Positions 15,443-60,629 of a DNA stretch of 64,000 bases are shown here, piece by piece. Under the pieces are notes generated by a model. The model did no database searches. It saw only the letters and a list, made by a program, of their open reading frames with translations, and was not told the origin of the DNA. The DNA comes from Bacteroidota bacterium. GTDB lineage: Bacteria; Bacteroidota; Bacteroidia; Chitinophagales; Saprospiraceae. The DNA lies in contig JAKOVW010000030.1 of the NCBI GenBank assembly GCA_029781865.1, forward strand, positions 10,001-74,000. Direction: 5' to 3'. Position 1 is the stretch's first letter. Each line of letters starts with the position of its first letter. A program made the position numbers and the translations under genes.

Positions 15443-16187
15443 ACCGAAGATTGATGTTCTTCCGAAAACAATTGAAATATTCAGACTCAATAAATTCATC
15501 GCACATTGTGGCATCTGCTCCAGACGGGAAGCTGCTGAATTAGTAAAAAACGGCCAAATCACGGTGAATGGTCAGGTAAATACTAATCCGGCTTATGAAG
15601 TCCAGAAAGAAGATGTAATTATTTACAAGGGTAAGATCCTTCGCACTCATTCCAAAGAAATCTATCTGCTTCTCAATAAACCAAAAAATGTCATTACAAC
15701 TTTAAATGATGAACGCGGTCGCAAAACTGTATTTGATCTGATTAAAGATGATATTACCGAACGAGTCTATCCCGTAGGAAGATTAGATAGAAATACAACT
15801 GGCTTGTTGCTGATGACGAATGACGGTGATCTCGCACAAAAATTATCACATCCCAGTCACAAGACCAAAAAAATCTATCACGTTACCCTGGATAAACCGG
15901 TTTCCAAAAATGACCTGCAACTCATTTTGAATGGAGTTCAATTGGAAGATGGGAAAGCGGAAGTGGATGGAATTGATTATGCCAACGATAAACGAAATGA
16001 AGTTGGAATCGAAATTCATCTGGGTAAAAACCGAATTGTCAGACGAATTTTTGAACATCTGGGATATGAAGTAGAAAAACTGGACCGGGTTTATTTCGCC
16101 GGATTAACCAAAAAAAATCTGCCCAGAGGTAAATACAGACACCTTACTGATAAGGAAGTTATTCAATTAAAACATTTGAGACATTGA
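15417..16187 (+). CDS. rluB: Pseudouridine synthase, RluB/RsuA family
   Basis: 256-residue rRNA-modifying enzyme. N-terminal S4 RNA-binding domain (residues ~24-75: RLNKFIAHCGICSRREAAEL, GQITVNGQ), then the catalytic domain with VYPVGRLDRNTTGLLLMTND. The Asp in GRLDRNTTGL is the expected nucleophile. KKIYHVTLDKP and GKNRIVRRIFEHLGYEV are also family marks. Likely target: 23S rRNA around position 2605, by analogy with RluB; RluE/RluF-type specificity cannot be excluded. The ATG lies inside the 3' end of dnaB (26-nt overlap, different frame), so translation is probably coupled. Its last codons (HLRH, stop) lie in the first words of an octamer repeat array. Confidence 0.92.
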   Translation: MKKKTFRSRPKIDVLPKTIEIFRLNKFIAHCGICSRREAAELVKNGQITVNGQVNTNPAYEVQKEDVIIYKGKILRTHSKEIYLLLNKPKNVITTLNDERGRKTVFDLIKDDITERVYPVGRLDRNTTGLLLMTNDGDLAQKLSHPSHKTKKIYHVTLDKPVSKNDLQLILNGVQLEDGKAEVDGIDYANDKRNEVGIEIHLGKNRIVRRIFEHLGYEVEKLDRVYFAGLTKKNLPRGKYRHLTDKEVIQLKHLRH

Positions 16188-16306
16188 GACAATTAGGTAG
16201 TTAGGTGTTTAGGTGTTTAGGTTGTTAGATAGTTGAGATATTCCTAAAAGTCTAAAAACCTAAATAGCTAAAAGGCTAATTGACTAACAGACTAAAAAGC
16301 TAAAAT
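16176..16306. repeat. Inverted pair of 8-bp-period arrays at the rluB stop codon
   Basis: Left arm (16176-16238): two TTGAGACA words, one overlapping the rluB TGA stop, then 8-bp words of the form NNTTAGGT to about 16238 (e.g. GTTTAGGT at 16207 and 16215). Right arm (16243-16306): eight consecutive 8-bp words NCTAAANN (CCTAAAAG, TCTAAAAA, CCTAAATA and so on). The arms are mutually complementary in part (TTTAGGTT with AACCTAAA) and could fold back. They lie between convergent rluB and the lipoprotein gene, so they may act as a bidirectional terminator. See findings for the family of such arrays. Confidence 0.85.
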
Positions 16307-16332
16307 GCTTCTATTAATCGGGTTTCCCTGCA

Positions 16333-16851
16333 TTAATTAATAAAAACATCAAATTGAACGGTGAGATGATGATCAGAAACAGAACCGGGCGTTACTTTAA
16401 TATTCAGTAATAATCGCATCACAAACTCAGGTTCTGAAATAATGCTTTTTACATCCGCAATTCCGGGCAGAAAAAAAAGTTCGGCTGGATTGCCGACAGG
16501 AAAATCAATATTGGCAATTTGAAGAATTCCATTTGGATCTCTTTGAAGATAAACACTTACCCGCCCTTCAGAAATGATATCATAATTTATGGCATTGTCA
16601 AATACAGGTGTCAACTTGATCGACCTGGGTTGTATTTTCTTTATATCTTTTAAGCTTAAATGATTTGCATTTAAAAACTGAATGAAGTTTGAAGGCATAC
16701 TCAATTCAAACTTATGAGTCAAAATCGGATTTGCATCTGCAGGCAGTTCAATCGGCATATCATATTCCAATTGAAATTGTCCTGACTCTTGCTTTATGCA
16801 TGACGTCAAACCGATTAACATTAAGAAAAAGGCAAGGTATTTATAATTCAT
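16333..16851 (-). CDS. Putative lipoprotein, unknown function
   Basis: 172 residues. Lipoprotein signal peptide with lipobox LTSC (Cys18), so it should be membrane-anchored by a lipidated Cys. The remainder is strand-rich with no catalytic motif (QFQLEYDMPIELPAD, RSIKLTPVFDNAINYDI, ending LTVQFDVFIN). It resembles the many small Bacteroidota lipoproteins of unknown role, and I recognise no named family. It is convergent with rluB. A -7 box ends 4 nt before its ATG. Confidence 0.7.
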   Translation of the reverse strand: MNYKYLAFFLMLIGLTSCIKQESGQFQLEYDMPIELPADANPILTHKFELSMPSNFIQFLNANHLSLKDIKKIQPRSIKLTPVFDNAINYDIISEGRVSVYLQRDPNGILQIANIDFPVGNPAELFFLPGIADVKSIISEPEFVMRLLLNIKVTPGSVSDHHLTVQFDVFIN

Positions 16852-16855
16852 TCTT

Positions 16856-16863
16856 CAAAGATA
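16856..16863 (-). promoter_or_regulatory. -7 box TATCTTTG abutting the lipoprotein ATG
   Basis: Exact TAnnTTTG on the minus strand with only 4 nt before the start codon at 16851. A leaderless or near-leaderless transcript is expected. Confidence 0.55.
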
Positions 16864-17045
16864 ATAGTGGTTGATTTATAGCATTCATAATTGCCGGAAT
16901 CATCTGTTTTCAGATTATAAACTAAGAAATGAGGTTTAAAGCAATTCTTTTTCAAAATTAAGACGAATCGGGTCAAATTGATTTGTATAATACATTTCTA
17001 AAGAGCACACAACATGTGACAAATGGTTCATATATCAGATCTCAC

Positions 17046-17076
17046 TTTGCCAAGTGAATCAGGTAATGTATTTTTG
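17046..17076 (+). promoter_or_regulatory. Full Bacteroidota promoter of the VCBS lipoprotein operon
   Basis: TTTG at 17046-17049, exactly 19 nt, then TATTTTTG at 17069-17076. This is the textbook -33/-7 arrangement of the primary Bacteroidota sigma factor. Start site expected near 17082, about 40 nt before the ATG at 17123. Confidence 0.8.
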
Positions 17077-17122
17077 CTGTCCAACCAACTGAAAACGAAT
17101 CATTTAATTAATTATTTTCCTA

Positions 17123-20100
17123 ATGAAAAATATTCTAATAATCAGCTCTTTAACTGTGGCTGCATTATATCTGGTTCTGATTGGTTCGTGTTCAAAAGAC
17201 AAGCCTAAGGCTCTGCAAGGACCTTTGTTCAGTCTGATGGATCCCAAAAACACCGGAATCGAATTTGCCAATAAGATTACGGAAACTCAGGATGAGTATA
17301 TATACAATTTTAATTATATTTATAACGGTGCTGGCGTCGGCGTCGCTGATTTCAACAACGATGGACTTCAGGATATCTATTTCGCAGGTAATCAGGTTCC
17401 AGACCGCTTATATCTCAACAAAGGCAATTTTAAGTTTGAGGACATTTCAGAAAAAGCAGGCATTTCTAAATTTGATGGATGGAGAAATGGTGTAACCATC
17501 GTCGACATTAATAATGATGGATATCCTGACATATACATCACAAGAGGCGGCTTCAAAAATGATCCCTCTAAAAACAGAAATCTTTTATTGGTCAATCAAA
17601 AAAATCTTACGTTCAAAGATGAAGCTGCTGCTTATGGAATTGATGATCCCGGGTATAGCATTGCTGCAACTTTTTTTGATTACGACAACGATAATGATCT
17701 GGATTTATATGTAACCAACAGGCCGGAGCGATGGAAAATCCAAACTGAAGATATCATTAAAGAAAAAGAATTACAAAAAACAAGAATTGATCCATTAGTA
17801 ACCCATCATCTTTATCGCAATGACAATGGTAAATTCACGGATGTATCCAAAGAAGCCGGAATTTACCCCAGCTATAGTTATGGTTTGAGTGCCATAGCAG
17901 GAGACATCAATAAAGATGGCACACAGGATTTATATGTAGCCAATGATTTTATAGAACACGATTACTTCTATGTTAATATGGGAAATGGAACTCTGCGGGA
18001 AAGTTCAAGAGATCTTTGCAATCACGTACCATTTTATGCCATGGGCGCTGATTTTGGCGATATCAATAATGACGGATTTGAAGAAATCCTGGTGGTTGAA
18101 ATGAGACCCGAAGATTACAAGCGCTCCAAAACAACGATGCCGGCCATGCAACCTGAATTCTTTTATGACTTAAGACGAAGAGGATTCGTGGATCAATACA
18201 TGCATAATGTTTTGCAATACAACCAGGGAAATGGTTTCTTCTCTGACATAGCTCAATTAGCCGGAGTTGAAAAAACGGATTGGTCGTGGGCTGCATTGAT
18301 TTACGATGTTGACAATGATGGTTACAAAGATATTTACATCACGAATGGATATTTACGGGATGTGTATGATCGCGACGGAAATATCATTATGGATAGCATT
18401 CTTAAGAAAACGGACAATTATGTAACCAATCCTGAAGATGCTTTAAAATATCTTCCTTCGGTAAAATTGGTAAATTATGTATTCCAGAATCAGAAGGATC
18501 TGACCTTTAAAAAAATGATGAAAGACTGGGGCATTACCAAAGCCGGGTTTTCAAATGGCGCAGCATTCGCTGATCTGGATAACGATGGTGATTTGGATTT
18601 AGTCATTAATAATATCAATGATCCTGCATTTGTTTATCGCAATAATCTTGACCATTCTAAAAATTATTTGAGAATTCAACTTGAAGGACCAGAACATAAT
18701 TTAACCGGCATCGGTGCAAAGGTGACCATACATACCGGAAAACAAATTCAGTATCAGCAATTCAAAGTTACAAGAGGATATCTTTCTTCCTGTGAGCCTA
18801 TAGTTCATTTTGGTTTAGATTCAATTCCAGAAGTGGATAAAGTAGAAGTGGAATGGCCAGATGGAAAACAGAATGAGTTGGAACATGTAAAAGCAAATCA
18901 GCTCCTGAAAATTTCATATAAACAGGCAGTCAATAAAACAGCACAACCCATTGCACACAAACCGGTTTTTCAGGAAATTACTGCAACTACTATGTTTCCT
19001 CCATTTTTTCATAAAGAAAATGACTTTAATGATTATCAGAAGCAAGTATTGCTACCGCACTCTTTAAGCAAGACCGGACCGCAGGTTACGGTAGGAGATG
19101 TCAATCACGACGGACTCCAGGATTTTTTTGTTGGTGCTGCACATAATCAGTCCGGCGAATTGTATTTGCAATCCAAAGACGGAACTTTTCGCAATTTAAA
19201 AAATCCCGCATTCGAGAAAGATAAACTGCAAAAAGAATATGGCAGCACTTTTTTTGATGCGGATGGAGATGGTGATCTGGATCTGTATGTCGTTTCGGGA
19301 GGTACCGAATTTCCCGAGGGAGATCCTGTTTATCAGGATCGACTTTATCTCAATGACGGCAATGGACATTTTACCAAAGCAAACGGTGCAATACCGCTTA
19401 CTAAATCAAGCGGTTCATGTGTAATTGCTGCAGATATGGATGGCGATGGCGACCTTGATTTATTTCGCGGTGGCAGATGCATACCGGATAAATATCCTTA
19501 TCCTCCTGATAGTTATTTGTTCGAAAATCTGGGCAACGGAAAGTTTAAGGATGTCACCGATGAAAAAGCACCCGGGCTAAGAAAAATTGGTATGGTTACA
19601 TCTGCGGTCTGGCAGAATCTGAACGGTGACAAAAACCCCGAATTAGTTGTGGTGGGTGAATGGATGCCAATTACCATTTTTGAAAATAAAAACGGTAAAC
19701 TTGAAAAATCAAAAGCCGAAACATTCGGTTTGAATAACACAGAAGGCTGGTGGAATCGCATCGTAGCAGCAGATCTGGATCAGGATGGCGATATGGATTT
19801 TGTTGTTGGCAACCTGGGATTGAATTACAAATTTCATGCGAATGAAGAAAAACCATTTCAGGTCTTCTGCGATGATTTTGACAAAAATGGTACCTATGAT
19901 ATTGTCCTGGCTAAATTCAACAATAATCAAATGGTACCGATTCGGGGAAAGCAATGTTCATCAGAACAGGTTCCCGAAATTGCTGTTAAGTTTCCAAGTT
20001 ATAATTCATTTGCAAATGCAACACTCAGCGATATCTATGGTGATGGTTTAAAAAATGCCCTTCACTATCAGGCTAAATTATTTAAAAGTGTCATTTTAAA

Positions 20101-20449
20101 AAACAACGGTGGTACGTTTGAAATCATAGCTCTTCCTGTAGAAGCTCAATTCTCAACCATACAGGGCATTGCCGTAGACGACTTTGACCAGGACGGGTAT
20201 CCGGATATCGTTATCGCTGGTAACTTATTTCAGGCTGAGATAGAAACGACAAGGGCAGATGCGTCCATTGGCTTATTGATGAAAGGGGTAAAATCAAAAC
20301 AAATGGTTGAACCGGTATCCGTTTTGGATTCCGGTATATTCCTTCCGAATGATGTCAAAGATGTAAAAACGATCATCGTCAATAACAAACCCTGTTTTCT
20401 TGCAACGGCAAATAATTCTGCTCTACTTTATTTTAAAAATATAAAATGA
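17123..20449 (+). CDS. VCBS/FG-GAP repeat lipoprotein with ASPIC/UnbV domain (CRTAC1-like), copy 1
   Basis: 1108 residues. Lipobox IGSC (Cys23) gives a lipid anchor. The body is two blocks of FG-GAP/VCBS beta-propeller blades with Ca-binding loops (DFNNDGLQDIYFAGN, DINNDGYPDIYITRGG, DLDNDGDLDLVINN, DADGDGDLDLYVVSGG). They are split by an ASPIC/UnbV domain around residues 515-610 (YLRIQLEGPEHNLTGIGAKV, RGYLSSCEPIVHFGL, VEVEWPDGK). It is predicted to be a surface or periplasmic propeller protein; partner and ligand are unknown. The stop overlaps the next paralogue's start by 4 nt, and a full promoter lies upstream. Confidence 0.88.
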   Translation: MKNILIISSLTVAALYLVLIGSCSKDKPKALQGPLFSLMDPKNTGIEFANKITETQDEYIYNFNYIYNGAGVGVADFNNDGLQDIYFAGNQVPDRLYLNKGNFKFEDISEKAGISKFDGWRNGVTIVDINNDGYPDIYITRGGFKNDPSKNRNLLLVNQKNLTFKDEAAAYGIDDPGYSIAATFFDYDNDNDLDLYVTNRPERWKIQTEDIIKEKELQKTRIDPLVTHHLYRNDNGKFTDVSKEAGIYPSYSYGLSAIAGDINKDGTQDLYVANDFIEHDYFYVNMGNGTLRESSRDLCNHVPFYAMGADFGDINNDGFEEILVVEMRPEDYKRSKTTMPAMQPEFFYDLRRRGFVDQYMHNVLQYNQGNGFFSDIAQLAGVEKTDWSWAALIYDVDNDGYKDIYITNGYLRDVYDRDGNIIMDSILKKTDNYVTNPEDALKYLPSVKLVNYVFQNQKDLTFKKMMKDWGITKAGFSNGAAFADLDNDGDLDLVINNINDPAFVYRNNLDHSKNYLRIQLEGPEHNLTGIGAKVTIHTGKQIQYQQFKVTRGYLSSCEPIVHFGLDSIPEVDKVEVEWPDGKQNELEHVKANQLLKISYKQAVNKTAQPIAHKPVFQEITATTMFPPFFHKENDFNDYQKQVLLPHSLSKTGPQVTVGDVNHDGLQDFFVGAAHNQSGELYLQSKDGTFRNLKNPAFEKDKLQKEYGSTFFDADGDGDLDLYVVSGGTEFPEGDPVYQDRLYLNDGNGHFTKANGAIPLTKSSGSCVIAADMDGDGDLDLFRGGRCIPDKYPYPPDSYLFENLGNGKFKDVTDEKAPGLRKIGMVTSAVWQNLNGDKNPELVVVGEWMPITIFENKNGKLEKSKAETFGLNNTEGWWNRIVAADLDQDGDMDFVVGNLGLNYKFHANEEKPFQVFCDDFDKNGTYDIVLAKFNNNQMVPIRGKQCSSEQVPEIAVKFPSYNSFANATLSDIYGDGLKNALHYQAKLFKSVILKNNGGTFEIIALPVEAQFSTIQGIAVDDFDQDGYPDIVIAGNLFQAEIETTRADASIGLLMKGVKSKQMVEPVSVLDSGIFLPNDVKDVKTIIVNNKPCFLATANNSALLYFKNIK

Positions 20450-30183: not shown

Positions 30184-30258
30184 GAAGACGAGAAGCTAGG
30201 AACTAGGAACTAGGAGTGATGAGTTAGGAGTTAGGAGTTAGGAGTTGGGAGTTGGAGA
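30184..30258 (+). repeat. 7-bp-period array with GAAGACGAGA boundary
   Basis: Nine 7-bp words in register from 30196 (CTAGGAA x2, CTAGGAG, TGATGAG, TTAGGAG x3, TTGGGAG, TTGGAGA). They are preceded at 30184-30193 by GAAGACGAGA, a 10-mer that also precedes the array at 53223. Located between the DUF6089 gene 3' end and the ABC operon. Confidence 0.85.
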
Positions 30259-30353
30259 TAGGATTTATGGTTTTCATGAAAGTTGGTGTGATTGACTAAC
30301 TATAGATGAACTGATCACATTGTCGTGAGGACAATTTGAGATTAGTATTTTTA

Positions 30354-47802: not shown

Positions 47803-47894
47803 GTTTGTACTTTAAGGACGCAAAGTAAAACCAAAAAAACCTGTTTCGCAATACCCCGGCAATCTTTTGATTTCTTAGAATACAATATCCGACT

Positions 47895-47966
47895 GTAGGA
47901 ATTTAGGAGTTTAGGGATTTAGGTGTTTAGGGATTTAGTTATTTAGGGGTTTAGATGATTAGTTAA
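47895..47966 (+). repeat. 8-bp-period TTAGGNNN array (left arm of an inverted pair)
   Basis: Nine 8-bp words in perfect register: GTAGGAAT, TTAGGAGT, TTAGGGAT, TTAGGTGT, TTAGGGAT, TTAGTTAT, TTAGGGGT, TTAGATGA, TTAGTTAA. It faces the CCTAAA-rich arm at 48054-48138. Confidence 0.88.
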
Positions 47967-48053
47967 TCTGTAAATACTTTAATGTACTATAGATATTGTT
48001 TAGAGCCCATTGATATAATAAGCTGAACAGAAATAATCTCCAATCCATCTAGC

Positions 48054-48138
48054 CTATGGCCTAAAAGTCTAAAGCCTAATAACCTAAAGCCTAAAAGCCT
48101 ATAACCTAAATACCTACGACCTAATAACCTCCAGCCTT
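48054..48138 (-). repeat. 15-bp-period (8+7) CCTAAA array (right arm) at the pepP 3' end
   Basis: Read on minus toward the left: alternating 8- and 7-nt words TTATTAGG, TCGTAGG, TATTTAGG, TTATAGG, CTTTTAGG, CTTTAGG. These make a 15-nt super-period. The pepP stop TAG is itself in a CTTTAGAGG context 18 nt before the array. Confidence 0.85.
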
Positions 48139-50126: not shown

Positions 50127-51677
50127 ATGATCAAACAACATCTTAGCCAAAGTCTTTTACAAAAGTTATCTCCTCAGCAAATTCAATTAATGAAATTGCT
50201 TCAAATTCCTACTTCCATTTTGGATCAACGGATTCAGGAAGAATTGGAATCCAATCCCGCGCTGGATGAAGGCAACGAACAAGAAGAGACCTATGATCAG
50301 GATGAAAAGGATACCGAATATGAAACCGACTATGAAGCAGAAGCTTCCGAACATAATGAAAAGGACAGCCAGGACGATTTAATGAACAGCGATAGTTTTG
50401 ATGACTATCTCAACAATTACATGGATGACAATACGGCTTCCTATAAATACAAATCTGAAGAGTTTGGAGGAAGTGAAGAAGAACACAGAGCAGTTCCAAT
50501 TGCAGTAGAAAGCACTTTCCACGATCATCTTAAAAAACAAATCGGACTTCTTAAATTAAAAAATGAAAATCAATATAAAATTGCATTACAATTAATAGGT
50601 AGTATTGATGATGATGGTTATTTGAGAAGAGAACCCAATGCCATCATTGATGATTTGATATTCTCTCAAAATATCGTTGCCACCGAAAAGGAAATTCTTG
50701 AAATCTTGGGTAAAATTCAATCATTTGATCCGCCGGGCGTAGGTGCCAGATCCCTTCAGGAATGTTTGTTATTACAGGTAAGAGCCAAACTGAAAAACAA
50801 TACCAATAAATTGCAATTAAAAGTACTTCGGTTGACCGAATTTATTTTAGAAAAATATTTCGAAGAATTTACCAAGAAGCATTATACCAAATTGCAACGG
50901 GTATTAAATCTTACCGAAGCGCAATTGAAAGTTGCGGTAAATGAAATTTTAAAATTAAATCCAAAACCGTCCTCCGGCTATGTAGATCAATTGCCTACTT
51001 CATTGGTTGCAGGCCATTACATCGTGCCTGATTTTACCATTCACAACCGGGATGGTGTATTGGAGTTAAGCCTGAATAGCCGCAATGCGCCGGATCTGAG
51101 AATCAATGATCAGTATCTGGATATGCTGAGATCCTATAAAGACAACAAGAAAGCAGGAAATACAAACAAACAGGAAAAAGAAGCGGTTTTGTTCATCAAA
51201 CAGAAAATCGAATCTGCAAAGTGGTTTATAGACGCTATTAAACAAAGGCAGGATACTTTGTATAAAACCATGTATGCCATCATGCAATATCAGCAAGACT
51301 ATTTCATGACCGGTGATCAGAAAAAAATTAAACCGATGATACTGAAAGACATTGCCGAAATTACTTCGCTTGATATTTCGACTGTGTCCCGTGTTGCCAA
51401 TAGCAAATTTGTCCAGACCGAATTCGGCACAAAACGTTTGAAGGATTTCTTCTCCGAGTCAATGCAGAACGAAGAAGGAGATGAAGTTTCCACTCTAGAA
51501 GTGAAAAAAATTCTTTCTGATCTGGTCCAAAACGAAAGCAAACGCAAACCATTGAGCGACGAAAAACTGAAGAACTTATTATTCCGGAGAGGTTACAATA
51601 TTGCCCGACGCACCATCGCAAAATACCGCGAACAAATGAATATCCCTGTGGCGAGATTGCGCAAGGAACTCGTTTAG
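50127..51677 (+). CDS. rpoN: RNA polymerase sigma-54 factor RpoN
   Basis: 516 residues. Region I is Gln/Leu-rich (SLLQKLSPQQIQLMKLLQIP, EELESNPALDE), followed by an acidic region II (~45-100). The core-binding domain starts at about 120 (LKLKNENQYKIALQLIGSID, FDPPGVGARSLQECL). Then come the HTH region (DIAEITSLDISTVSRVANSK) and the RpoN box (ARRTIAKYREQMNIPVARLR) near the end. All regions are present. It directs transcription from -24/-12 promoters and needs an AAA+ activator, none of which is in the window. Its TAG stop lies in the first word of an octamer array. Confidence 0.96.
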   Translation: MIKQHLSQSLLQKLSPQQIQLMKLLQIPTSILDQRIQEELESNPALDEGNEQEETYDQDEKDTEYETDYEAEASEHNEKDSQDDLMNSDSFDDYLNNYMDDNTASYKYKSEEFGGSEEEHRAVPIAVESTFHDHLKKQIGLLKLKNENQYKIALQLIGSIDDDGYLRREPNAIIDDLIFSQNIVATEKEILEILGKIQSFDPPGVGARSLQECLLLQVRAKLKNNTNKLQLKVLRLTEFILEKYFEEFTKKHYTKLQRVLNLTEAQLKVAVNEILKLNPKPSSGYVDQLPTSLVAGHYIVPDFTIHNRDGVLELSLNSRNAPDLRINDQYLDMLRSYKDNKKAGNTNKQEKEAVLFIKQKIESAKWFIDAIKQRQDTLYKTMYAIMQYQQDYFMTGDQKKIKPMILKDIAEITSLDISTVSRVANSKFVQTEFGTKRLKDFFSESMQNEEGDEVSTLEVKKILSDLVQNESKRKPLSDEKLKNLLFRRGYNIARRTIAKYREQMNIPVARLRKELV

Positions 51678-51751
51678 GAAGTCTATAGGCATTAGGTGGC
51701 TAGGCTTTTAGGTGTTTAGACATTTAGAAGTTTAGGTGCATAATTGTTTAG
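51671..51751 (+). repeat. 8-bp-period NNNTTTAG array starting at the rpoN stop
   Basis: The rpoN stop (TAG in CGTTTAGGAA) starts it, followed after a phase slip by 8-bp words GGCATTAG, GTGGCTAG, GCTTTTAG, GTGTTTAG, ACATTTAG, AAGTTTAG, GTGCATAA, TTGTTTAG (51688-51751). Confidence 0.85.
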
Positions 51752-51770: not shown

Positions 51771-52222
51771 GTTGTTGCAAGTTTACATTTGAAGTAATCG
51801 CGAGTTTGCAGCTGAAGTTGTTGCAAGTTTGCTCGGGTTGTTGCAAGTTTGCAACTTGCAACCATTCTACAGGCAGATTACAAACTAATACCATTTTATT
51901 AGTTGCAAATACCCTCTGCCATGAAACCATTGTTGCAAGTTTCCATCTGAAGTTGTTGCAAGTTTGCAGCTGAAGTTGTTGCAAGTTTCCATCTGAAGTT
52001 GCTACAAGTTTCCATCTGAAGTTGTTGCAAGTTTGCAACTTGCAACCATTCCACAGACCACAGACCAAAAAATGAAGTTGTTGCAAGTTTGCAACTTGCA
52101 ACCATTCTACGGGCAGAATTCAAACTAATACCATTTTACTAGTTGCAAATATCCGCTGCCATGAAACCGTTGTTGCAAGTTTGCAACTTGCAACCATTCC
52201 ACAGACCACAGACCAAAAAACC
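51771..52222. repeat. Mosaic minisatellite with 23-bp units and four perfect 10-bp hairpins
   Basis: Built from GTTGTTGCAAGTTTCCATCTGAA-like units of 23 bp (51771, 51794; four in a row 51929-52020). Four copies of GTTGCAAGTT-TGC-AACTTGCAAC follow a perfect stem-loop pattern (51840-51862, 52024-52046, 52080-52102, 52172-52194). Segments are duplicated at larger scale: about 110 bp from 51841 recur at 52081 (exactly 240 bp apart, few mismatches), and a ~52-bp block ending in ACAGACCACAGACC occurs at 52021 and about 52169. It is non-coding. Confidence 0.92.
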
Positions 52223-52322: not shown

Positions 52323-53222
52323 GTGAAATATTTTTTTGCAATTCTCATTTTTGCTTTTGTTTCCAATATTTCACCGGGACAATCATTAAATGTGTCGGCC
52401 GGTCGGTTGGTCCGGGTTGAAAATTTTCCTTCGCATTTTATACCGGCACGAAATATTGATATCTGGTTGCCCAATAATTACAGCTTCTCAAGAAAATACC
52501 GCGTCCTTTATATGCAGGATGGTCAATTTTTATTTAATCCGGATCAAAATCATCCTGAATGGAAAATGGACGAAACACTTGACAGCTTGTTATCCAAATC
52601 AGTCATTCAGGATTGCATCGTAGTAGGAATCTGGAATGCCGGCTTCAATTCCAAAGCCGAGTACTTTCCTCAAAAGGTGCTGGATCATTTTAGCTCTAGT
52701 AAAAGGCGATTATTTGTAAATAATCAATTGCGAAATAATCCTCATTCCGATGATTATTTAAAATTTATCGTCTATGAATTAAAGCCCTACATAGATCATA
52801 ATTTTTCCGTTTTCAGGGAGTCCACATATACCTATATTGCAGGATCAGGGGATGGCGCTTTGATTTCACTTTATGCCGTTTGCGAATATCCTTCCATCTT
52901 TCATGCTGCAGCTTGCTTTGATATTTATCAACAACCGGAATTCCAGTTACCTAAATTCATTTTGAAATATCTAAAAAAATATATTCCTGACCCACTGACG
53001 CATAGCTTCTACTTTGATTCAGCCGTTTTTACGCCTGATGAACCATTCACCAGCTTTCAACAAGATCTGGACGAATTATTTCAAAAGAAAAAATACGCCA
53101 ATAACTATCGAAGTAACTTCATTACCAACGAAATGCTGCAACAGATTGATTGGAACAAAAGACTTTGCAAACCGTTACTCTTTTTGTTGAAAAAAGAAGA
53201 GAAGACGAGAGAGGAGAGATGA
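52323..53222 (+). CDS. Esterase-fold (Fes/esterase D-like) exported protein lacking the catalytic serine
   Basis: 299 residues, GTG start, signal peptide (MKYFFAILIFAFVSNISPGQ). The alpha/beta-hydrolase pattern of the PF00756 esterases is clear: PARNIDIWLPNNY, YRVLYMQDGQFLF, VVGIWNAG, a YELKPYIDHNFSVFRE segment, then TYIAGSGDGALISLYAVCEYP. In active members the last segment reads GSSMGGL; here it is GSGDGAL, so the nucleophile position is Gly. No convincing C-terminal catalytic His is seen either. It may be a binding or structural protein, or decayed. The final residues EEKTREER are encoded by purine-rich sequence that runs into a heptamer array. Confidence 0.75.
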   Translation: MKYFFAILIFAFVSNISPGQSLNVSAGRLVRVENFPSHFIPARNIDIWLPNNYSFSRKYRVLYMQDGQFLFNPDQNHPEWKMDETLDSLLSKSVIQDCIVVGIWNAGFNSKAEYFPQKVLDHFSSSKRRLFVNNQLRNNPHSDDYLKFIVYELKPYIDHNFSVFRESTYTYIAGSGDGALISLYAVCEYPSIFHAAACFDIYQQPEFQLPKFILKYLKKYIPDPLTHSFYFDSAVFTPDEPFTSFQQDLDELFQKKKYANNYRSNFITNEMLQQIDWNKRLCKPLLFLLKKEEKTREER

Positions 53223-53257
53223 GTGGTTAGTGGTTAGTGGTTAGTGGTTAGTGGTTA
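53201..53257 (+). repeat. 7-bp GTGGTTA x5 array with GAAGACGAGA boundary at a stop codon
   Basis: Five identical GTGGTTA words (53223-53257), directly after the TGA stop of the esterase-like gene (53220-53222). They are preceded by GAAGACGAGA (53201-53210), the same 10-mer as at 30184-30193. The purine tract encodes the gene's last eight or so residues. Confidence 0.88.
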
Positions 53258-55494: not shown

Positions 55495-55625
55495 GATTCC
55501 TCACTGCCGTTCAGAATGACAGTATGCAAATTAGCAGAAGGGAACAAGCAGAAAGGCTATAGGCTTTCTGCTTCTTCCCTTCACTCTTAAAAATAATCCG
55601 TCATTCCGAACGGCAGTGAGGAATC
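55495..55625. repeat. 131-bp nested inverted-repeat element
   Basis: Outer arms of 26 bp match at 25 of 26 positions: GATTCCTCACTGCCGTTCAG (start of 55495-55520) with 55600-55625 (start GTCATTCCGAACGGCAG). An inner pair, AAGCAGAAAG / CTTTCTGCTT (55546-55555 with 55564-55573), extends into GAAGGGA / TTCCCTT. Transcribed, it would form a long hairpin. It resembles small non-coding inverted repeats dispersed in many bacterial genomes. Whether it is mobile cannot be told from one copy. Confidence 0.85.
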
Positions 55626-55971
55626 CGTTAATTAATGTGATTTAAAAAAATTAATCCGGAATAAGATTCATAAAATTATTTAGGCGCGTGCAAAATACTA
55701 TTTGCTATAAACACTCTTGTTGGTATTATTATGATTTGAATTAATTTCTTCGTTCCCTTGTATATTTCTACAAAGCAGGTATCAATGGCGCTGCTATCTG
55801 CACTGGGTTTGAATGCAAATTTGTATTTTTATTTAATCTTAATACAATCAAATCACCTGCTTTTGCTTTTCTTTCAGAGCCATGCATCTGATATTGCAAC
55901 TAGTAATTATATCTGGATAAAAAAACAATTGTTCAAAAAAATAGTAGGATCGCAATAAATTCTAATCCATT
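55626..55971. other. Gene-free interval after the inverted-repeat element
   Basis: About 345 nt, AT-rich. The only open frame (66 codons, plus, from 55758) has no family features or promoter box and is probably random. Confidence 0.45.
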
Positions 55972-56991
55972 TTACTTCCAATACGCACCTAATCTTTCAA
56001 TGGCATTCTCTCTTACATTTACATAAAAAATATTAAAATCACCCGCATGAAAATTGGAGAATGGATAAAAAAAACTGCCTTTGAATTTTGGCTTGTCTAC
56101 CCATAATATACTTTTGTGGATCTGAGCTCCGGACATACCAGCAATCGGAGCATCTTTTATATTATCCAGTACCGCTCCCTTGTTTTTTGATTTATCGACA
56201 TATACTTCATGTTCCGTAGTCCAACTCAATGGATTGGTAAGCACAATGGGCTTTTCGAATTGTACAAATTTTCCGTCATACCCTTTTTTAAAACTTCTCC
56301 AGCTACAGATGCATCCGGTCTGAAGCTTACTTTCACAGGGTTTTAAAATTTTATAATTGTCAATGGGAATTGGAAATCCAACTGCATAAGCAACTACGAG
56401 CTTTTTTCGCAAGGAATCATTATCAAAAAATTCCTTTAATAACCGGATCATATGGACAGTTCCCTGACTGTGTCCGGCCAGGATAATCGGCCTGCCCTTG
56501 TTGTAATTTTTCAAATAATATTCAAAGGCTGACCTGACATCCTGATAAGCCAGGTTTAATGCTTTATCCGCAGAAACTTTGTCGCTGCAAAAAAAACATT
56601 GATAATGGGCTTGCCGGTATCTCGGTGCATACACTTTACCTACACCATTGAATATACTGGCCTGAAATGTGATGGACCCGCCATCTGTTGCGTGATTCAC
56701 TTTATCATTATTGACATCAGCATTCCACTGATCATTTCCGCGCTTATTGAGATAACTTGTTGGATGTATAAAAAATACATCGGCCTGGGATTGATTTTGA
56801 ATATCTATTAACCCGGCAGGAACGCTATCAGCTGCATCTAAACGACCCGGCAAAGCTGCCCAGTTCTTATCAAGGCTGTAATCCGGAGCAGGCGGTGAAA
56901 CATATTGCTCAAAGGCTTTGGTTGGCTTTGTTGCTGCACACGAAGTAAAAATTATCAGAAATAAGATGCAACTTTGAACTGGAATTTTCAT
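55972..56991 (-). CDS. DUF3089-family alpha/beta hydrolase, lipoprotein
   Basis: About 339 residues from ATG 56991. The longer frame to 57018 would bury the signal peptide. Lipobox FTSC predicts a lipidated, envelope-located protein. Family features: VFFIHPTSYLNKRGNDQWNA, VYAPRYRQAHYQCF, LAYQDVRSAFEYYL, nucleophile elbow ILAGHSQGTVHM, VVAYAVGFPIPID, CICSWRSFKKGY, and a C-terminal His in NFHAGDFNIFYVNVRENA. The catalytic Ser and His are in place, unlike the esterase-like protein at 52 kb. Substrate is unknown. Divergent from rlmN. Confidence 0.85.
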   Translation of the reverse strand: MKIPVQSCILFLIIFTSCAATKPTKAFEQYVSPPAPDYSLDKNWAALPGRLDAADSVPAGLIDIQNQSQADVFFIHPTSYLNKRGNDQWNADVNNDKVNHATDGGSITFQASIFNGVGKVYAPRYRQAHYQCFFCSDKVSADKALNLAYQDVRSAFEYYLKNYNKGRPIILAGHSQGTVHMIRLLKEFFDNDSLRKKLVVAYAVGFPIPIDNYKILKPCESKLQTGCICSWRSFKKGYDGKFVQFEKPIVLTNPLSWTTEHEVYVDKSKNKGAVLDNIKDAPIAGMSGAQIHKSILWVDKPKFKGSFFYPFSNFHAGDFNIFYVNVRENAIERLGAYWK

Positions 56992-57078
56992 TACTCTATA
57001 CTTACTTGTCTTGGACATACGAAGTAAACAATAAAAATGATTTAATGCTTAATACCAACTACTTTATTTTTATCATTA

Positions 57079-58125
57079 ATGGAATTAAATAAAAAAGACA
57101 TTTTATCATTGACAAAACCACAATTAAAGGAATCTCTCATTTCTTTAGGTTTTGAATCCTATCGACTGCAGCAGGTTGAAGACTGGTTGTGGAAACATGG
57201 CGTGAGACAATTTGATGCAATGAGCAATTTATCTAAAAGTCAAAGAGCTTTGCTGGAAGAAACTTTTTTCATACCCACCCTTACAGAAGACAAAATGCAG
57301 CAAAGTAATGACGGCACTTTAAAATTCAGATTCAAACTACATGATGGTTATTTGATTGAATCGGTTTTAATTCCTGTTGCTGAGGAAGATCGCTATACCT
57401 TGTGCGTTTCATCACAGGCCGGTTGCAGCCTTTCCTGTAAATTTTGTGCTACCGGTCAAATGGGATTGCTCAGGCATCTCACTGCTTCAGAAATTTTTGA
57501 CCAATATATGTGGGTCAATGCAAAATGCATTGAGCTTTACGGAAAACCATTAACCAATATCGTGTATATGGGCATGGGTGAGCCTCTATTGAACTATAAA
57601 AATGTAATGGAAAGTGTCGCACGTCTTACTTCAGAATCCGGACCACACCTTTCTGCCAAACGAATTACTATTTCAACCGCCGGCATTGCAAAAATGATTC
57701 GAAAATTAGCCGATGACGGGACGAAAGTAAATCTGGCATTGTCGCTTCATGCCGCTGATGATAAAAAGCGAAATACCATGATGGCCATCAATGAAACCAA
57801 TAATTTATCGACATTGATGGAAGCCCTAAAGTATTTTTATAAAAAAAGCGGTAACCGGATCAGTTACGAATACATTGCCTTTCAAAATTTTAATGACACC
57901 ACCGCTGATGCAAAGAATTTAATACGCATGTGTTCCCAATTTCCGGTTCGGGTCAATGTCATCGAATACAATCCGGTAAAAGGACTTGATTTCATAAAAT
58001 CTTCGGAAGACCGCATTAATGATTTCGCGCGGGAGGTCCGCAAACATGGAATCATGATTACAGTAAGAAGAAGCCGTGGAAAAGATATTGACGCAGCATG
58101 CGGGCAGCTTGCAGGGGAAGGATGA
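57079..58125 (+). CDS. rlmN: Dual-specificity 23S rRNA/tRNA adenine-C2 methyltransferase RlmN
   Basis: 348-residue radical-SAM enzyme making 2-methyladenosine in 23S rRNA (A2503) and some tRNAs. N-terminal helical domain (LGFESYRLQQVEDWLWKHG), then the CxxxCxxC cluster motif in AGCSLSCKFCATGQMGLLR (~115-130). NIVYMGMGEPLLNY follows, and the C-terminal catalytic Cys lies in DIDAACGQLAG. A second conserved Cys forming the methylated residue pair is present in the family position. Length is standard. The TGA stop is 7 nt before a heptamer array. Confidence 0.96.
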   Translation: MELNKKDILSLTKPQLKESLISLGFESYRLQQVEDWLWKHGVRQFDAMSNLSKSQRALLEETFFIPTLTEDKMQQSNDGTLKFRFKLHDGYLIESVLIPVAEEDRYTLCVSSQAGCSLSCKFCATGQMGLLRHLTASEIFDQYMWVNAKCIELYGKPLTNIVYMGMGEPLLNYKNVMESVARLTSESGPHLSAKRITISTAGIAKMIRKLADDGTKVNLALSLHAADDKKRNTMMAINETNNLSTLMEALKYFYKKSGNRISYEYIAFQNFNDTTADAKNLIRMCSQFPVRVNVIEYNPVKGLDFIKSSEDRINDFAREVRKHGIMITVRRSRGKDIDAACGQLAGEG

Positions 58126-58132
58126 AGCAAGA

Positions 58133-58188
58133 GATCAGAAATCTGAGATATGAAATATGAACTATGAGTTATGAGTTATGAGTTATCA
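58133..58188 (+). repeat. 7-bp NNTATGA array after rlmN (left arm)
   Basis: Eight 7-bp words in register: GATCAGA, AATCTGA, GATATGA, AATATGA, ACTATGA, GTTATGA x2, GTTATCA. Inverted partner at 58355-58410. Confidence 0.85.
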
Positions 58189-58354
58189 GCTAATTAAGTA
58201 GGTTTTCGCAATATGAAATAATGAGTTTCGCACTTTGAGTACACAATTCTTAGCACCATTAGGCAAACGAAATTTACCATAAAATACCCCAGTAAAAACC
58301 ACGCCTAGCTTCAGAAGCTGAGATATGAGCTAAGTAGTTTATTAACTTTCGAAA

Positions 58355-58410
58355 ATCTCAAATCTCAAATCTCAGATCTCAGATCTCATAGTTCAGATCT
58401 CAGATCTAAT
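58355..58410 (-). repeat. 7-bp ATCTCAN array at the pfkB stop (right arm)
   Basis: Eight 7-bp words (ATCTCAA x2, ATCTCAG x2, ATCTCAT, AGTTCAG, ATCTCAG, ATCTAAT). The last word contains the pfkB stop codon (TAG on minus, 58406-58408). Its reverse complement shares CTGAGAT and GAACTATGAG wording with the left arm, so the two form an inverted pair across a ~165-nt spacer. Confidence 0.85.
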
Positions 58411-59341
58411 TCATTGTATCCAATTCATTTACCTGGAAGGTAGAAAGTTGTTCAAATTGGCGGATTCGTTCGTGAAGTTGTTGTTGTGTTAAGTTGCGAA
58501 GATTATTCAAGCTGAAATCTTCAACACAAAAAGATGCCATGGTAGATCCGTAAATGATTGCGGTTTTCATATTCGCATAACTGATATCATCTGTGCGTGC
58601 CAGGTAACCGATCATTCCACCTGCAAAGCTATCGCCTGCACCGGTTGGATCAATAACATCAGGTACAGGTAATCCGGGTGCAAAGAAAATCTGGTCGTCA
58701 TGAAAAAGTAAAGCGCCATGCTCCCCTTTTTTAATAACGAGAAATTTGGGTCCCATGTGGTGAATTTTGGCTGCAGCCCTTACCAAACTATGCTCTCCGG
58801 AAAGTTGACGAGCTTCTTCATCATTGATAGTCAGTACATCAACTCTGGCGATCACTTCCCGAAGTTTATCCATAGAATGATCCATCCAGAAATTCATGGT
58901 GTCGAGAATGATAAGTTTAGGCTTTGATGTCAGTTGGTCTAGTACAGATAACTGAATATCCGGGGTCAGATTACCCAGCATGATATACTGGCTGTTTCTA
59001 TAACTTTCAGGAAGAACCGGATTAAATTCAGCCAAAACATTGAGATCCGTGACCAGGGTATCCCTGTTATTCATGTCTTTATGGTATTTCCCGGCCCAGA
59101 AGAACGATTTTTTGCCAGGTACCCGAACCAGTCCCTGCATATTTACCCCTCTTGCCTCAAGGGCTTTTATTTCAGATTCGGGAAAATCATCTCCAACAAT
59201 GGAAACGAGGTTGATATTTTTATACCAGTAGGATGCCGCCCAACTAATATAAGTACAGGCCCCTCCGATCACTTTTTCAGCGTTTCCAAAAGGCGTTGAA
59301 ATGCTGTCAAATGCCAGAGTCCCAATGGTTAGAATACTCAT
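58406..59341 (-). CDS. PfkB-family carbohydrate/nucleoside kinase
   Basis: About 311 residues from ATG 59341 (MSILTIGTLAFDSISTPFG), the normal ribokinase-family beginning. The frame is open 21 nt further upstream. PfkB signatures: GGACTYISWAASYW early, LVSIVGDDFP, TINDEEARQLSG and the catalytic anion-hole motif DPTGAGDSFAGG (Asp base) at about 240-251. Phosphorylates a sugar or nucleoside with ATP; substrate not readable. Cytoplasmic. Just downstream of tRNA-Asn, separated by a terminator. Confidence 0.9.
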   Translation of the reverse strand: MSILTIGTLAFDSISTPFGNAEKVIGGACTYISWAASYWYKNINLVSIVGDDFPESEIKALEARGVNMQGLVRVPGKKSFFWAGKYHKDMNNRDTLVTDLNVLAEFNPVLPESYRNSQYIMLGNLTPDIQLSVLDQLTSKPKLIILDTMNFWMDHSMDKLREVIARVDVLTINDEEARQLSGEHSLVRAAAKIHHMGPKFLVIKKGEHGALLFHDDQIFFAPGLPVPDVIDPTGAGDSFAGGMIGYLARTDDISYANMKTAIIYGSTMASFCVEDFSLNNLRNLTQQQLHERIRQFEQLSTFQVNELDTMN

Positions 59342-59363
59342 TTTATAGAATTTAACATTCAAA

Positions 59364-59399
59364 ATAAAAGCCTAAAAGGAAACTCCCTTTAGGCTTTTT
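59364..59399 (-). terminator. Terminator after tRNA-Asn
   Basis: AAAGCCTAAAGG pairs with CCTTTTAGGCTTT around a short loop, and T-rich sequence follows on the minus strand (59364-59369). It lies immediately 3' of the encoded CCA and before pfkB. The plus strand also ends in a T run, so it could work in both directions. Confidence 0.75.
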
Positions 59400-59476
59400 T
59401 GGCGCCCCCTCTTGGGCTCGAACCAAGGACCTGCGGATTAACAGTCCGACGCTCTAACCAGCTGAGCTAAGGAGGC
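59400..59476 (-). tRNA. tRNA-Asn (anticodon GTT), CCA encoded
   Basis: Full cloverleaf on the minus strand: acceptor GCCTCCT with AGGGGGC, D-arm GCTC/GAGC, anticodon stem TCGGA/TCCGC around loop CTGTTAA (anticodon GTT), T-arm CTTGG-TTCGAGC-CCAAG, discriminator G (59403) and genomically encoded CCA (59402-59400). Body is 74 nt without CCA. A -7 box lies 17 nt upstream and a terminator directly downstream. Confidence 0.97.
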
Positions 59477-59492
59477 GTTTTTTAACGGAGTG

Positions 59493-59500
59493 CAAATATA
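59493..59500 (-). promoter_or_regulatory. -7 box TATATTTG of tRNA-Asn
   Basis: Exact TAnnTTTG on minus, 16 nt before the tRNA 5' end. A TTG lies 16 nt upstream, shorter than the usual 19. Confidence 0.6.
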
Positions 59501-59530
59501 AATTCAATAACTGAATCAATAAAATTAATT

Positions 59531-60274
59531 CTATTCGCTGGTTAAAACAGCCCCTATCATAGCTCTGTTCATCCTGGCTATATTTTCCAAACTGATTTCC
59601 TTAGGACATTCTGCCTCACAAGCACCTACGTTACTGCAGAATCCAAATCCTTCTTCATCCATCTGTTTGACCATATTCCGGACCCGCGAGGTATGCTCCA
59701 ATTTACCTTGTGGTAACAGGCCCAAATGAGATACTTTGGCCGCCGTAAACAGCATTGCTGATCCATTCGGACACGCAGCCACACAGGCACCGCAGCCGAT
59801 ACAGGCCGCTGCATCAAAAGATTTGGAAGCACAATCCCGGTTGACGGGTATGGCGTTTCCATCCTGTGCCTGACCTGTATTTACAGAGATATAACCGCCT
59901 GCCTGAATAATCCTGTCAAAGGCCGAACGGTCAACTACCAGATCCTTGATCACCGGAAATGCCCTCGCACGAAATGGCTCAATAACAATCTCATCCCCTT
60001 CCTTAAAAAACCGCATATGCAGCTGGCAGGTGGTTGTCGCTTTATTCGGCCCATGCGGCCTGCCATTAATCACCATACTGCAGGCTCCACAAATTCCTTC
60101 CCTGCAATCGTGATCAAAGGCAACAGGCTCTTTCTTTTCTTCAATTAATTGTTCATTGAGTACATCGAGCATCTCCAAAAAAGACATGTGCTCATTGGCA
60201 TTTACCTGATATGTTTCAAAAGCACCTTTTGCGTTTTGGCTTTTTTGACGCCATATTTTAAGTTTCAGATTCAT
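59531..60274 (-). CDS. sdhB: Succinate dehydrogenase/fumarate reductase iron-sulfur subunit
   Basis: 247 residues. N-terminal plant-ferredoxin-type domain with 2Fe-2S ligands [15 protein letters not shown] and a later CQLHMRFF. C-terminal bacterial ferredoxin domain with the 4Fe-4S motif [15 protein letters not shown] and the 3Fe-4S motif [16 protein letters not shown]. Passes electrons from SdhA flavin to the membrane cytochrome. It should follow sdhA directly in this operon type, but ~350 nt with a decayed gene separates them here. Confidence 0.95.
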
Positions 60275-60349
60275 ACTAATTGGTTTGAAGTTTTCAGTTG
60301 ACTGTTGGCCGTATTGTCCTCGCCTTTGTCAATGAAAATTTATTTATCA

Positions 60350-60592
60350 TTATTTATTTTTATTGATCCGAATATTTTCCGGATAATCTATCCTGTATTG
60401 ACTTGTTTTTCCAATTGATTCCCCGAGAAAACTGCATCTGACAGCTAACCTAAACCAAATCATGGTTTCACTAATTTCAATTCCGGAATATCTCCTTAAC
60501 TGGTCCATTAAACTATTCTTCTCCTCTTTGGGAAATACTTTCGTTAATGCAAAGATTTTCATAGTTCAAGCAAACGACTTTTCATTAGCTTT
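60350..60592 (-). pseudogene. Decayed four-helix-bundle (TIGR02436-like, 23S rRNA intervening-sequence protein) gene
   Basis: A 70-codon frame from ATG 60562 reads KIFALTKVFPKEEKNSLMDQ then LRR, the hallmark centre of TIGR02436 proteins. It then jumps straight to an ISETMIWFRLAVRCSFL segment like the family's later helix. The expected RxSxSxxSNIxEG-type stretch of ~25-30 residues is missing. In frame upstream, KANEKSFA is followed by TGA where intact members continue with a Trp-containing helix. So the gene is a relic with a premature stop and an internal deletion. It sits between sdhA and sdhB beside a heptamer array. Confidence 0.6.
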
Positions 60593-60601
60593 ATTTCTCC
60601 A

Positions 60602-60629
60602 AACTGCTAACTGCCAACTGCCAACTATT
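60602..60629 (-). repeat. 7-bp GTTGGCA array at the sdhA stop
   Basis: On minus, the sdhA TAG stop (60627-60625) is followed in register by GTTGGCA, GTTGGCA, GTTAGCA, GTTTGGA. The stop codon lies in the first word. The relic four-helix-bundle gene begins about 10 nt beyond. Confidence 0.75.

What the first reader, a model, noticed from the sequence alone, without database searches (positions are those of the whole stretch)
16176..60629. A dispersed family of 7/8-bp-period arrays that supply or abut stop codons
Short arrays with strict 7- or 8-nt period occur after rluB, pepP, rpoN, the esterase-like gene, rlmN, pfkB and sdhA, plus two intergenic copies (30196, 47895). In rluB, rpoN, pfkB and sdhA the stop codon lies within array wording; in pepP it is in a matching CTTTAGAGG context; in the esterase-like gene the array starts at the next base. 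Words differ per locus (TTAGGNNN, GTTATGA, ATCTCAG, GTGGTTA, GTTGGCA) but are uniform within a locus, so it is not one dispersed sequence but one architecture. Such consistency at gene 3' ends suggests a process that targets terminators or stop codons, or an element that carries its own stop. I know of no standard name for it.
Basis: partly seen in the sequence, partly recalled or inferred. Interest (0 to 1): 0.85.

Follow-up and report, generated by a model that had tools for sequence, protein, structure and literature searches.

The report
Short repeat arrays anchored at stops
In this environmental Bacteroidetes genome and its relatives, short 7- or 8-base tandem repeats sit just after gene stop codons with their G-rich strand pointing away from the gene; one-word versions were known in other bacteria, but here the rule holds with many different repeated words.

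Summary
In 859 kb of the host genome, 68 of 71 period-7/8 arrays are intergenic; 36 of 68 lie within 15 nt of a stop codon (or overlap it), against 16.7 expected in the same gaps (maximum 26 of 1000 shuffles). Starts are not enriched. Near stops the sense strand is G-rich in 35 of 41 arrays. The 12 gaps scored with both polarities all read G-arm then C-arm. Other genera of the family show the same layout with other words; in 80 SdhA loci not chosen for arrays, 30 of 36 intergenic arrays have period 7 or 8.

In 38 of 51 comparable array genes an orthologue stops within one codon, so arrays mostly start at the native stop rather than carry a new one. Host and same-genus sdhA have different words at the same conserved stop.

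Prior art: Rehm et al. 2015 describe the same placement for one quadruplex-forming heptamer type in Xanthomonas and Nostoc. Here 0 of 68 arrays have a G3-quadruplex pattern. Best account: tracts that grow and copy among themselves, attach at stop triplets by short homology, and are tolerated there. No function is shown. New variant of a known kind.

The parts
16176..16234 (+). 8-nt array (TTGAGACA, then TTAGGNNN) over and after the rluB stop (TGA 16185-16187)
16244..16309 (-). inverted 8-nt arm (TTAGNNNN on the minus strand), 23 nt after the stop of the convergent ORF 16333-16851
30191..30273 (+). 7-nt array (TAGGAGT) between two minus-strand genes, 80 nt from the nearest stop; C-rich in gene sense, an exception to the polarity rule
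47891..47975 (+). 8-nt TTAGGNNN array, apparent first arm of an inverted pair
48051..48130 (-). CCTAANNN arm of mixed 7/8-nt step, about 25 nt after the pepP stop and G-rich in pepP sense; found by Tandem Repeats Finder, below the score used for the pair counts
51692..51739 (+). 8-nt TTAGGNNN array after the rpoN stop (TAG 51675-51677); stop wording similar but out of 8-nt register
53203..53257 (+). 7-nt GTGGTTA array over and after the esterase stop (TGA 53220-53222), with a purine-rich end of the coding sequence
58130..58192 (+). 7-nt array after the rlmN stop (TGA 58123-58125); 6 of 7 in-array stop triplets in register with the native stop
58353..58407 (-). 7-nt array over and after the pfkB stop, TGAGATC words on the minus strand; partner arm of the rlmN array
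60597..60626 (-). 7-nt array (CAGTTGG) starting at the conserved sdhA stop; the same-genus genome G004 has a different word at the same stop

Best explanation
The arrays are short-tandem-repeat tracts that grow in place with a 7- or 8-nt step (most simply by DNA polymerase slippage) and are copied between loci within a genome, so that each genome has its own preferred words. A stop triplet in the G-rich strand of a donor unit (TTAG, GTGA, CTAG) offers short homology to the TAG, TGA or TAA of a gene end. A copied or slipped tract therefore attaches at the native stop, in sense orientation and often in register, usually without changing the protein. Fold-back copying across the gap gives the inverted second arm. 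Inside genes or at promoters such tracts are lost; just after a stop they are tolerated. Shown: periods, placement, polarity, pairing, mostly retained native stop, genome-preferred words. Partly shown: register with the native stop. Inferred: slippage, short-homology attachment, fold-back copying, absence of a host function.
For: Intergenic autocorrelation peaks at 7, 8, 14 and 21 and not in coding DNA. Placement at stops and not at starts. Sense strand G-rich in 35 of 41 stop-proximal host arrays and in 13 of 14 in the 80 SdhA loci not chosen for arrays. An orthologue stops within one codon in 38 of 51. In-array stops are mainly in the native-stop register in 14 of 38 such genes; one gene is counted twice, so 13 of 37 distinct, about 5 expected, binomial p 0.0008. 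Array genes use TGA/TAG in 30 of 44 cases against 219 of 575 for other genes. Words: the share of arrays that have a word in common with another array is 0.54, 0.57, 0.71 and 0.74 within G004, G023, G026 and G032, but 0.07-0.19 with a host sample of equal size. Different words at the orthologous sdhA stop of host and G004. Inverted pairs arise per gap (12 against 3.4 expected) and not per gene (3 against 1.9), all 12 in G-then-C order. Ku is not found in G000, G001 or G004, and RVT_1 not in G001 or G004, so neither is required.
Against: Register with the stop is only partial: 24 of 38 verified genes have another dominant phase, and an ORF that runs into an array ends in register by construction; orthologue checking reduces but does not remove this. 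A purine-rich leader (74% purine against 50%) of 4-25 nt separates stop and array in 24 host cases, which simple stop-triplet homology does not predict. Polarity also holds at 5' edges (12 G-outward, 3 C-outward, 1 neutral), where there is no stop triplet. Word sharing between the two arms of a gap is not significant (permutation p 0.089, n = 12). Words are preferred, not exclusive: against the whole host set, 7 of 13 G004, 4 of 7 G023, 5 of 7 G026 and 9 of 23 G032 arrays find a shared word. No pair of near-identical genomes with and without an array was found; the closest pairs (L107/L108/L116, 90-91%) hold no array in the stretch held, so no birth event was seen.
Confidence: 0.45

Rival explanations
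1. Functional 3' element: the array (or its paired arms) is a transcript 3' end, terminator or stabilising stem selected after stop codons.
For: Stop-proximal, and more common in convergent gaps (16 of 77) than divergent ones (3 of 80). Paired gaps fold better (median z -2.14 in 10 gaps; single-arm -1.05 in 37; no array -0.53 in 40); the 120 nt after stops fold slightly better with arrays (mean z -1.11, n = 35, against -0.65, n = 80). In Xanthomonas, transcripts began or ended at G4-forming repeats more often than at control repeats (PMC4692102, section on RNA-seq read).
Against: Most array gaps hold a single polarity (48 of 60), with weak structure. Intrinsic-terminator-like sites 1 of 35 with arrays, 26 of 340 without, 3 of 340 after shuffling. 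Words differ freely between genomes and at orthologous genes, and most orthologues lack an array (rlmN 25 of 30 loci, rluB 28 of 30, sdhA 75 of 80).
Confidence: 0.2
2. Dedicated repeat-adding process: G-rich repeats are added to the 3' strand at DNA ends beside genes (telomere-like), and two extended ends are joined, giving G-arm/C-arm pairs.
For: Outward G-strand polarity at both edges and 12 of 12 pairs in fusion order; pairing is a property of the gap and not the gene.
Against: No RVT_1 match in the array-bearing genomes G001 and G004, nor in G010; no Ku match in the host or in G004. One genome uses many words, unlike a single template. No enzyme identified.
Confidence: 0.12
3. Stop insurance: 7- and 8-nt steps put stop codons in all three frames, selected against read-through and frameshift.
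For: 401 stop triplets in stop-proximal host arrays against 277 +/- 24 after permuting columns; 7 and 8 are not multiples of 3; in the pooled other genomes more units carry a stop at stops (0.79) than away (0.57).
Against: The antisense strand is enriched more strongly (304 against 153 +/- 21). Host arrays away from stops carry as many G-strand stops (0.88 of units in both). Periods 4, 5, 10 and 11 would serve too and are absent from the 459-kb host sample.
Confidence: 0.08
4. Mobile element inserting at stops and carrying its own stop.
For: Same words dispersed in one genome; abrupt start at stops.
Against: Orthologous stop retained in 38 of 51. The stretch between the rlmN and pfkB arms has no match elsewhere in the host genome; the 20 other host matches are to arrays or a tRNA-like stretch (33 of 120 first-look candidates were scored). 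A MITE-like element beside one G026 array has a 7/8-nt array within 120 nt in only 2 of 20 other copies fetched.
Confidence: 0.05
5. Quadruplex-forming repeats as in Xanthomonas, function through G4.
For: Same placement and polarity as PMC4692102.
Against: 0 of 68 host arrays have a four-tract G3 pattern; 25 of 68 have a four-tract G2 pattern.
Confidence: 0.03

Closest known systems
G-rich heptamer repeats GGGNATC of Xanthomonas and GGGGA(C/T)T of Nostoc (Rehm et al. 2015, PMC4692102; seen: abstract, introduction, two whole sections and passages)
   Same: 7-nt period, intergenic, G strand on the sense strand within 50 bp of stops (some overlapping the stop) or on the antisense strand upstream of ORFs, under-represented between divergent ORFs, paired convergent copies in Xanthomonas
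   Different: There one G4-forming word type per genome; here many words per genome, different preferred words per genome, 7- and 8-nt steps, no G3 tracts, and stop retention checked against orthologues
TAACTGA direct repeats of Beggiatoaceae, cyanobacteria and some Bacteroidetes (MacGregor 2015, PMC4679880; seen: abstract and one section)
   Same: Intergenic heptamer arrays; mentions larger heptamer assemblages in Bacteroidetes
   Different: Mostly just upstream of starts in the BOGUAY genome; one word; no stop-codon rule
Cyanobacterial short tandemly repeated repetitive sequences (STRR) (name and details recalled; PMC4692102 mentions three heptanucleotides of Calothrix)
   Same: Heptanucleotide arrays between genes (recalled)
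   Different: No stop anchoring known to me; not tested here
Interstitial telomeric repeats and telomere fusions of eukaryotes (recalled)
   Same: TTAGG-like words, G strand outward, head-to-head G-then-C pairs
   Different: Bacterial, many words, 7/8-nt step, no RVT_1 enzyme found in two array-bearing genomes

Membership tests
Stop-proximal G-rich heptamer repeats (Rehm type) | 7-nt tandem unit, intergenic | tested here: met
   56 of 71 arrays period 7, 15 period 8; 68 of 71 intergenic
Stop-proximal G-rich heptamer repeats (Rehm type) | G strand on sense strand near stops | tested here: met
   35 of 41, 5 opposite, 1 neutral
Stop-proximal G-rich heptamer repeats (Rehm type) | Under-represented between divergent genes | tested here: met
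   3 of 80 divergent gaps against 16 of 77 convergent
Stop-proximal G-rich heptamer repeats (Rehm type) | Paired copies in convergent orientation | tested here: met
   12 of 12 two-polarity gaps are G then C
Stop-proximal G-rich heptamer repeats (Rehm type) | Four runs of three or more G (G-quadruplex) | tested here: not met
   0 of 68
Stop-proximal G-rich heptamer repeats (Rehm type) | Preference for four units | not tested
   Unit-number distribution was not compared
Stop-proximal G-rich heptamer repeats (Rehm type) | Repeats are transcribed | not testable with these tools
   No transcript data
Intrinsic terminators | GC-rich stem followed by T run | tested here: not met
   1 of 35 array-bearing ends, own script
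MITE or insertion element | Dispersed core between or beside the arrays | tested here: not met
   One locus tested: no host match to the rlmN-pfkB spacer
MITE or insertion element | Target-site duplication at a filled site with a matching empty site | tested here: inconclusive
   No sufficiently close genome pair found
Telomerase-like repeat addition | Reverse transcriptase present in all array-bearing genomes | tested here: not met
   No RVT_1 match in G001 or G004; an RT outside PF00078 is not excluded

The most novel reading that the evidence does not exclude
A sequence-flexible, word-independent process in many Bacteroidetes adds 7- or 8-nt G-rich repeats outward from gene ends, anchored at stop codons, in the way chromosome ends are capped; the Xanthomonas and Nostoc G4 repeats would be one special-word case of the same process.
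Probability: 0.13. Interest if true: 0.85.

Novelty: new variant of a known kind. Interest (0 to 1): 0.55.

Why it matters
The placement rule (stop-anchored, G strand outward, 7-nt step, inverted pairs) was known for one quadruplex word type. Finding it with changing, non-quadruplex words and with 8-nt steps moves the question from what this sequence does to what process makes 7- and 8-nt steps at stop codons. That can be tested with strain series and mutation-accumulation lines. It also warns that TTAGG-like arrays beside genes in metagenomes need not be telomeric or regulatory.

Tried and rejected
Gene-calling artefact or low complexity: rejected by orthologue-confirmed ends and shuffles. 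G4: rejected by tract counts. Stop insurance: the column-permutation signal was not specific to stop-proximal arrays in the host, though the pooled other genomes lean towards it. mRNA 5'-3' pairing across a gene: 3 genes against 1.9 expected. Ku and RVT_1 as requirements: not met. Rho-site reading of the C-rich arms: considered only; several words (CAACTAA) have no YC step, judged by eye and not tested. Register over all 93 usable arrays without orthologue check (30 with dominant phase 0; 189 of 683 stops in phase against 96 expected) was set aside because ORFs ending inside an array are in register by construction. Filled/empty-site comparison: no close enough pair; L162/L164 (about 80% identical) show sdhB ends differing by serine codons that match the array word in L162, but the flanks downstream are not alignable. 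Six paper searches gave two closely relevant papers; of a third (PMC4060949) I saw passages, which say that tandem repeats of longer units are generally normally represented. The 2007 repeat survey cited by Rehm was not looked up, and most subscription journals are not held.

Limits of counts: host contigs were chosen from TTAGGNNN hits, G004, G023, G026 and G032 stretches from GTTAGNN hits, and some G001 and G006 stretches from earlier hits, so densities are biased; only the SdhA loci were chosen without regard to arrays. In one search one shuffle of each locus still gave 2 period-7 arrays. Genes were called by a simple codon-usage script, not a published caller. The reversed pattern used as control is itself common in G011, G032 and G008, so it is no null there. 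An earlier count said 52 compared genes; the printed rows number 51, which I use.
Full report
WHAT IS THERE. Its SdhA is 73-78% identical to the best-listed records of a GTDB scan, most of them titled Saprospiraceae, so it is placed near that family by inference. With one scoring rule the window holds 5 period-7 and 3 period-8 arrays against 0.04 and 0.06 per dinucleotide shuffle, and none of period 4-6 or 9-13. Pfam supports the gene names. Genome-wide, TTAGGNNN x3 occurs 47 times (25 forward, 22 reverse, overlapping hits counted apart) against 0 for the reversed control pattern.

STATISTICS IN THE HOST GENOME. In 459 kb the intergenic autocorrelation is 0.315 at lag 7, 0.295 at 8, 0.306 at 14 and 0.296 at 21, against 0.275-0.290 at the other lags from 6 to 30; coding DNA has 0.254-0.277 over those lags. 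In the same sample period-7 arrays number 35 and period-8 arrays 11, shuffles 0. In 859 kb (five contigs, chosen because they held TTAGGNNN hits) there are 71 arrays, 3 inside genes and 68 intergenic. 36 of 68 lie within 15 nt of a stop or overlap it; random placement in the same gap gives 16.7 (maximum 26 in 1000) and placement in any gap 7.1 (maximum 16 in 300). By gap type, gaps with arrays are 13 of 121 ++, 20 of 184 --, 16 of 77 +- and 3 of 80 -+. Within convergent gaps of 80 bp or more, 11 of 19 host arrays and 15 of 27 arrays of other genomes lie within 15 nt of a stop (5.8 and 7.4 expected; p 0.0075 and under 0.0005). In tandem gaps 18 of 39 and 22 of 50 lie at the stop (5.1 and 8.8 expected), but only 7 and 9 at the start, which is expectation. 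The enrichment is therefore specific to stops.

POLARITY AND PAIRS. Of 41 stop-proximal arrays 35 are G-rich on the sense strand, 5 C-rich and 1 neutral. Classified by the nearest gene edge, the G strand runs away from the gene in 40 arrays at 3' edges against 10 (2 neutral), and in 12 at 5' edges against 3 (1 neutral); at 3' edges further than 60 nt off it is 3 against 4. Of 60 gaps with arrays at a lower threshold, 34 have only G arms on the plus strand, 14 only C arms and 12 both; all 12 read G then C. Both arms in one gap occur 12 times against 3.4 expected in length-matched permutation (0 of 5000 as high), whereas arrays at both ends of one gene occur 3 times against 1.9. Sharing of 6-mers between arms of one gap is higher than between gaps (0.18 against 0.10) but not significantly (p 0.089, n = 12).

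WORDS. Within the host the same words recur: AGGAGTT in 11 stop-proximal arrays, AGCAGTT in 7, three words in 4 each. 40 of 54 host arrays with an exact tandem word share one with another host array, and 1-3 of 54 with arrays of each of G004, G023, G026 and G032; the other way round, against the much larger host set, 7 of 13, 4 of 7, 5 of 7 and 9 of 23 find a shared word. With samples of equal size the share is 0.54-0.74 within each of those genomes and 0.07-0.19 with the host. Words are thus preferred by genome, not exclusive. No host array (0 of 68) has four G3 tracts; 25 of 68 have four G2 tracts.

RELATIVES. Stretches of G004 (same genus), G023, G026 and G032 (same family), chosen by GTTAGNN hits, show the same layout with GTTAGTT, GTTAGAT, GTTAGTG and GAAGTTA/GAGGTTA words. 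In a pattern search of 60 genomes, 17 have GTTAGNN x3; G008 and G011 have only the reversed control pattern, G011 in quantity. Small stretches of G002, G005, G007 and G008 hold no array. Eighty SdhA loci from GTDB genomes, chosen without regard to arrays, hold intergenic arrays of period 7 (20) and 8 (10) and 6 of periods 9-12; one shuffle of each locus gave 2 of period 7; 13 of 14 stop-proximal ones are G-rich in sense, including two in Flavobacterium tegetincola; near starts 3 are C-rich and 2 G-rich.

ORTHOLOGOUS ENDS. rlmN: 5 of 30 loci carry a period-7/8 array (one far downstream, one really of period 4); rluB: 2 of 30; sdhA: 5 of 80. Array-bearing ends lie within one codon of the host end in all 12. 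Array-free ends do so in 24 of 25, 25 of 28 and 75 of 75; in rluB most (22 of 28) are one codon shorter than the host. Host sdhA (TAG, CAGTTGG words) and G004 sdhA (TAG, TAGTTGA words; 87% identical protein) both have an array at the same conserved stop, while G005, G006 and G007 have none. Across the loci used, 109 gene ends of about 80 aa or more carry arrays; 51 have a usable cross-genome match, and in 38 of these an orthologue's stop lies within one codon. One gene is present twice (L093 and L189). In 14 of these 38 the in-array stop triplets have the native stop's register as their dominant phase; 13 of 37 distinct genes against about 5 expected gives p 0.0008; the other 24 do not. Array genes use TGA 18, TAA 14 and TAG 12, other genes TAA 356, TGA 124 and TAG 95. 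The last 20 nt of coding sequence have GC skew 0.50 beside gaps with arrays and 0.23 beside gaps without. In 24 host cases a leader of 4-25 nt with 74% purines (control 50%) separates stop and array.

TESTS OF FUNCTION. Stops are enriched in stop-proximal host arrays against column permutation (401 against 277), but the antisense strand is enriched more (304 against 153), and host arrays away from stops have the same fraction of units with a stop (0.88). In the pooled other genomes it is 0.79 at stops and 0.57 away, which leans towards a role for the stops. Intrinsic-terminator-like sites: 1 of 35 with arrays, 26 of 340 without, 3 of 340 shuffled. Folding: median z -2.14 for 10 two-polarity gaps, -1.05 for 37 single-polarity gaps, -0.53 for 40 array-free gaps. 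RVT_1 is not found in G001, G004 or G010, nor Ku in the host, G001 or G004, so neither is a general requirement; the host itself has an RVT_1 protein on C51.

COMPARISON WITH THE LITERATURE. Rehm et al. 2015 (PMC4692102) report GGGAATC repeats in Xanthomonas and GGGGA(C/T)T in Nostoc with the same placement rule, many convergent pairs in Xanthomonas (few in Nostoc) and under-representation between divergent genes. They leave the function open and cite a polymerase-contact idea for 7-nt steps. MacGregor 2015 (PMC4679880) reports TAACTGA repeats, mostly before starts in the main genome studied. Six searches of the paper library (listings only) showed no paper describing word-independent, stop-anchored 7/8-nt arrays in Bacteroidetes; most subscription journals are missing from it.

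MECHANISM. I favour in-place growth by slippage plus copying between arrays, attached at stop triplets by short homology, with a fold-back copy as the second arm and selection acting only as a filter. The stop homology would explain placement, sense polarity, part of the register, and the retained native stop. It does not explain the purine leader or the outward polarity at 5' edges. A telomere-like addition at DNA ends would explain polarity and pairs, but no enzyme is indicated. A functional 3' element remains possible because two-polarity gaps do fold well.

VERDICT. Real, reproducible and not tied to one word; a new variant of a known kind, with an open and testable mechanism.

Noticed in passing
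window 51930-52034; also G000:C37:156655-157084, C20:118383-119080, C10:96744-97295: A second intergenic repeat family of about 23 bp with GTTGTTGCAAGTTTGCAACTTGCAAC-like palindromic clusters, sometimes directly after a 7-nt array.
   Followed up: no
L094:9650-9817 and L301-L320 (G026): A dispersed element of about 166 bp with terminal inverted repeats ACTAGTGGT...ACCACTAG, 39 further copies at 91-96% identity: MITE-like, beside one array; 2 of 20 other copies fetched have a 7/8-nt array within 120 nt.
   Followed up: partly
G000:C37:229109-229197: A long TTAGGCTG-type 8-nt array immediately upstream of two tRNA genes, away from any stop codon (the tRNAs are read by eye).
   Followed up: no
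L162 sdhB end, 12758-12812: Serine codons at the protein end (AGT AGT against AGC TCT in L164) match the array word, as if the array had spread into the coding end.
   Followed up: partly
G011 (72 forward and 40 reverse hits of the reversed control pattern): A genome rich in GATTGNN arrays, the mirror word of the host's; not fetched.
   Followed up: no
G000:C37:42746-43045: Between the two arms of an 8-nt pair lies a near-perfect short hairpin (AAAATATGATGAATAAAT...), possibly a terminator of its own (by eye).
   Followed up: no
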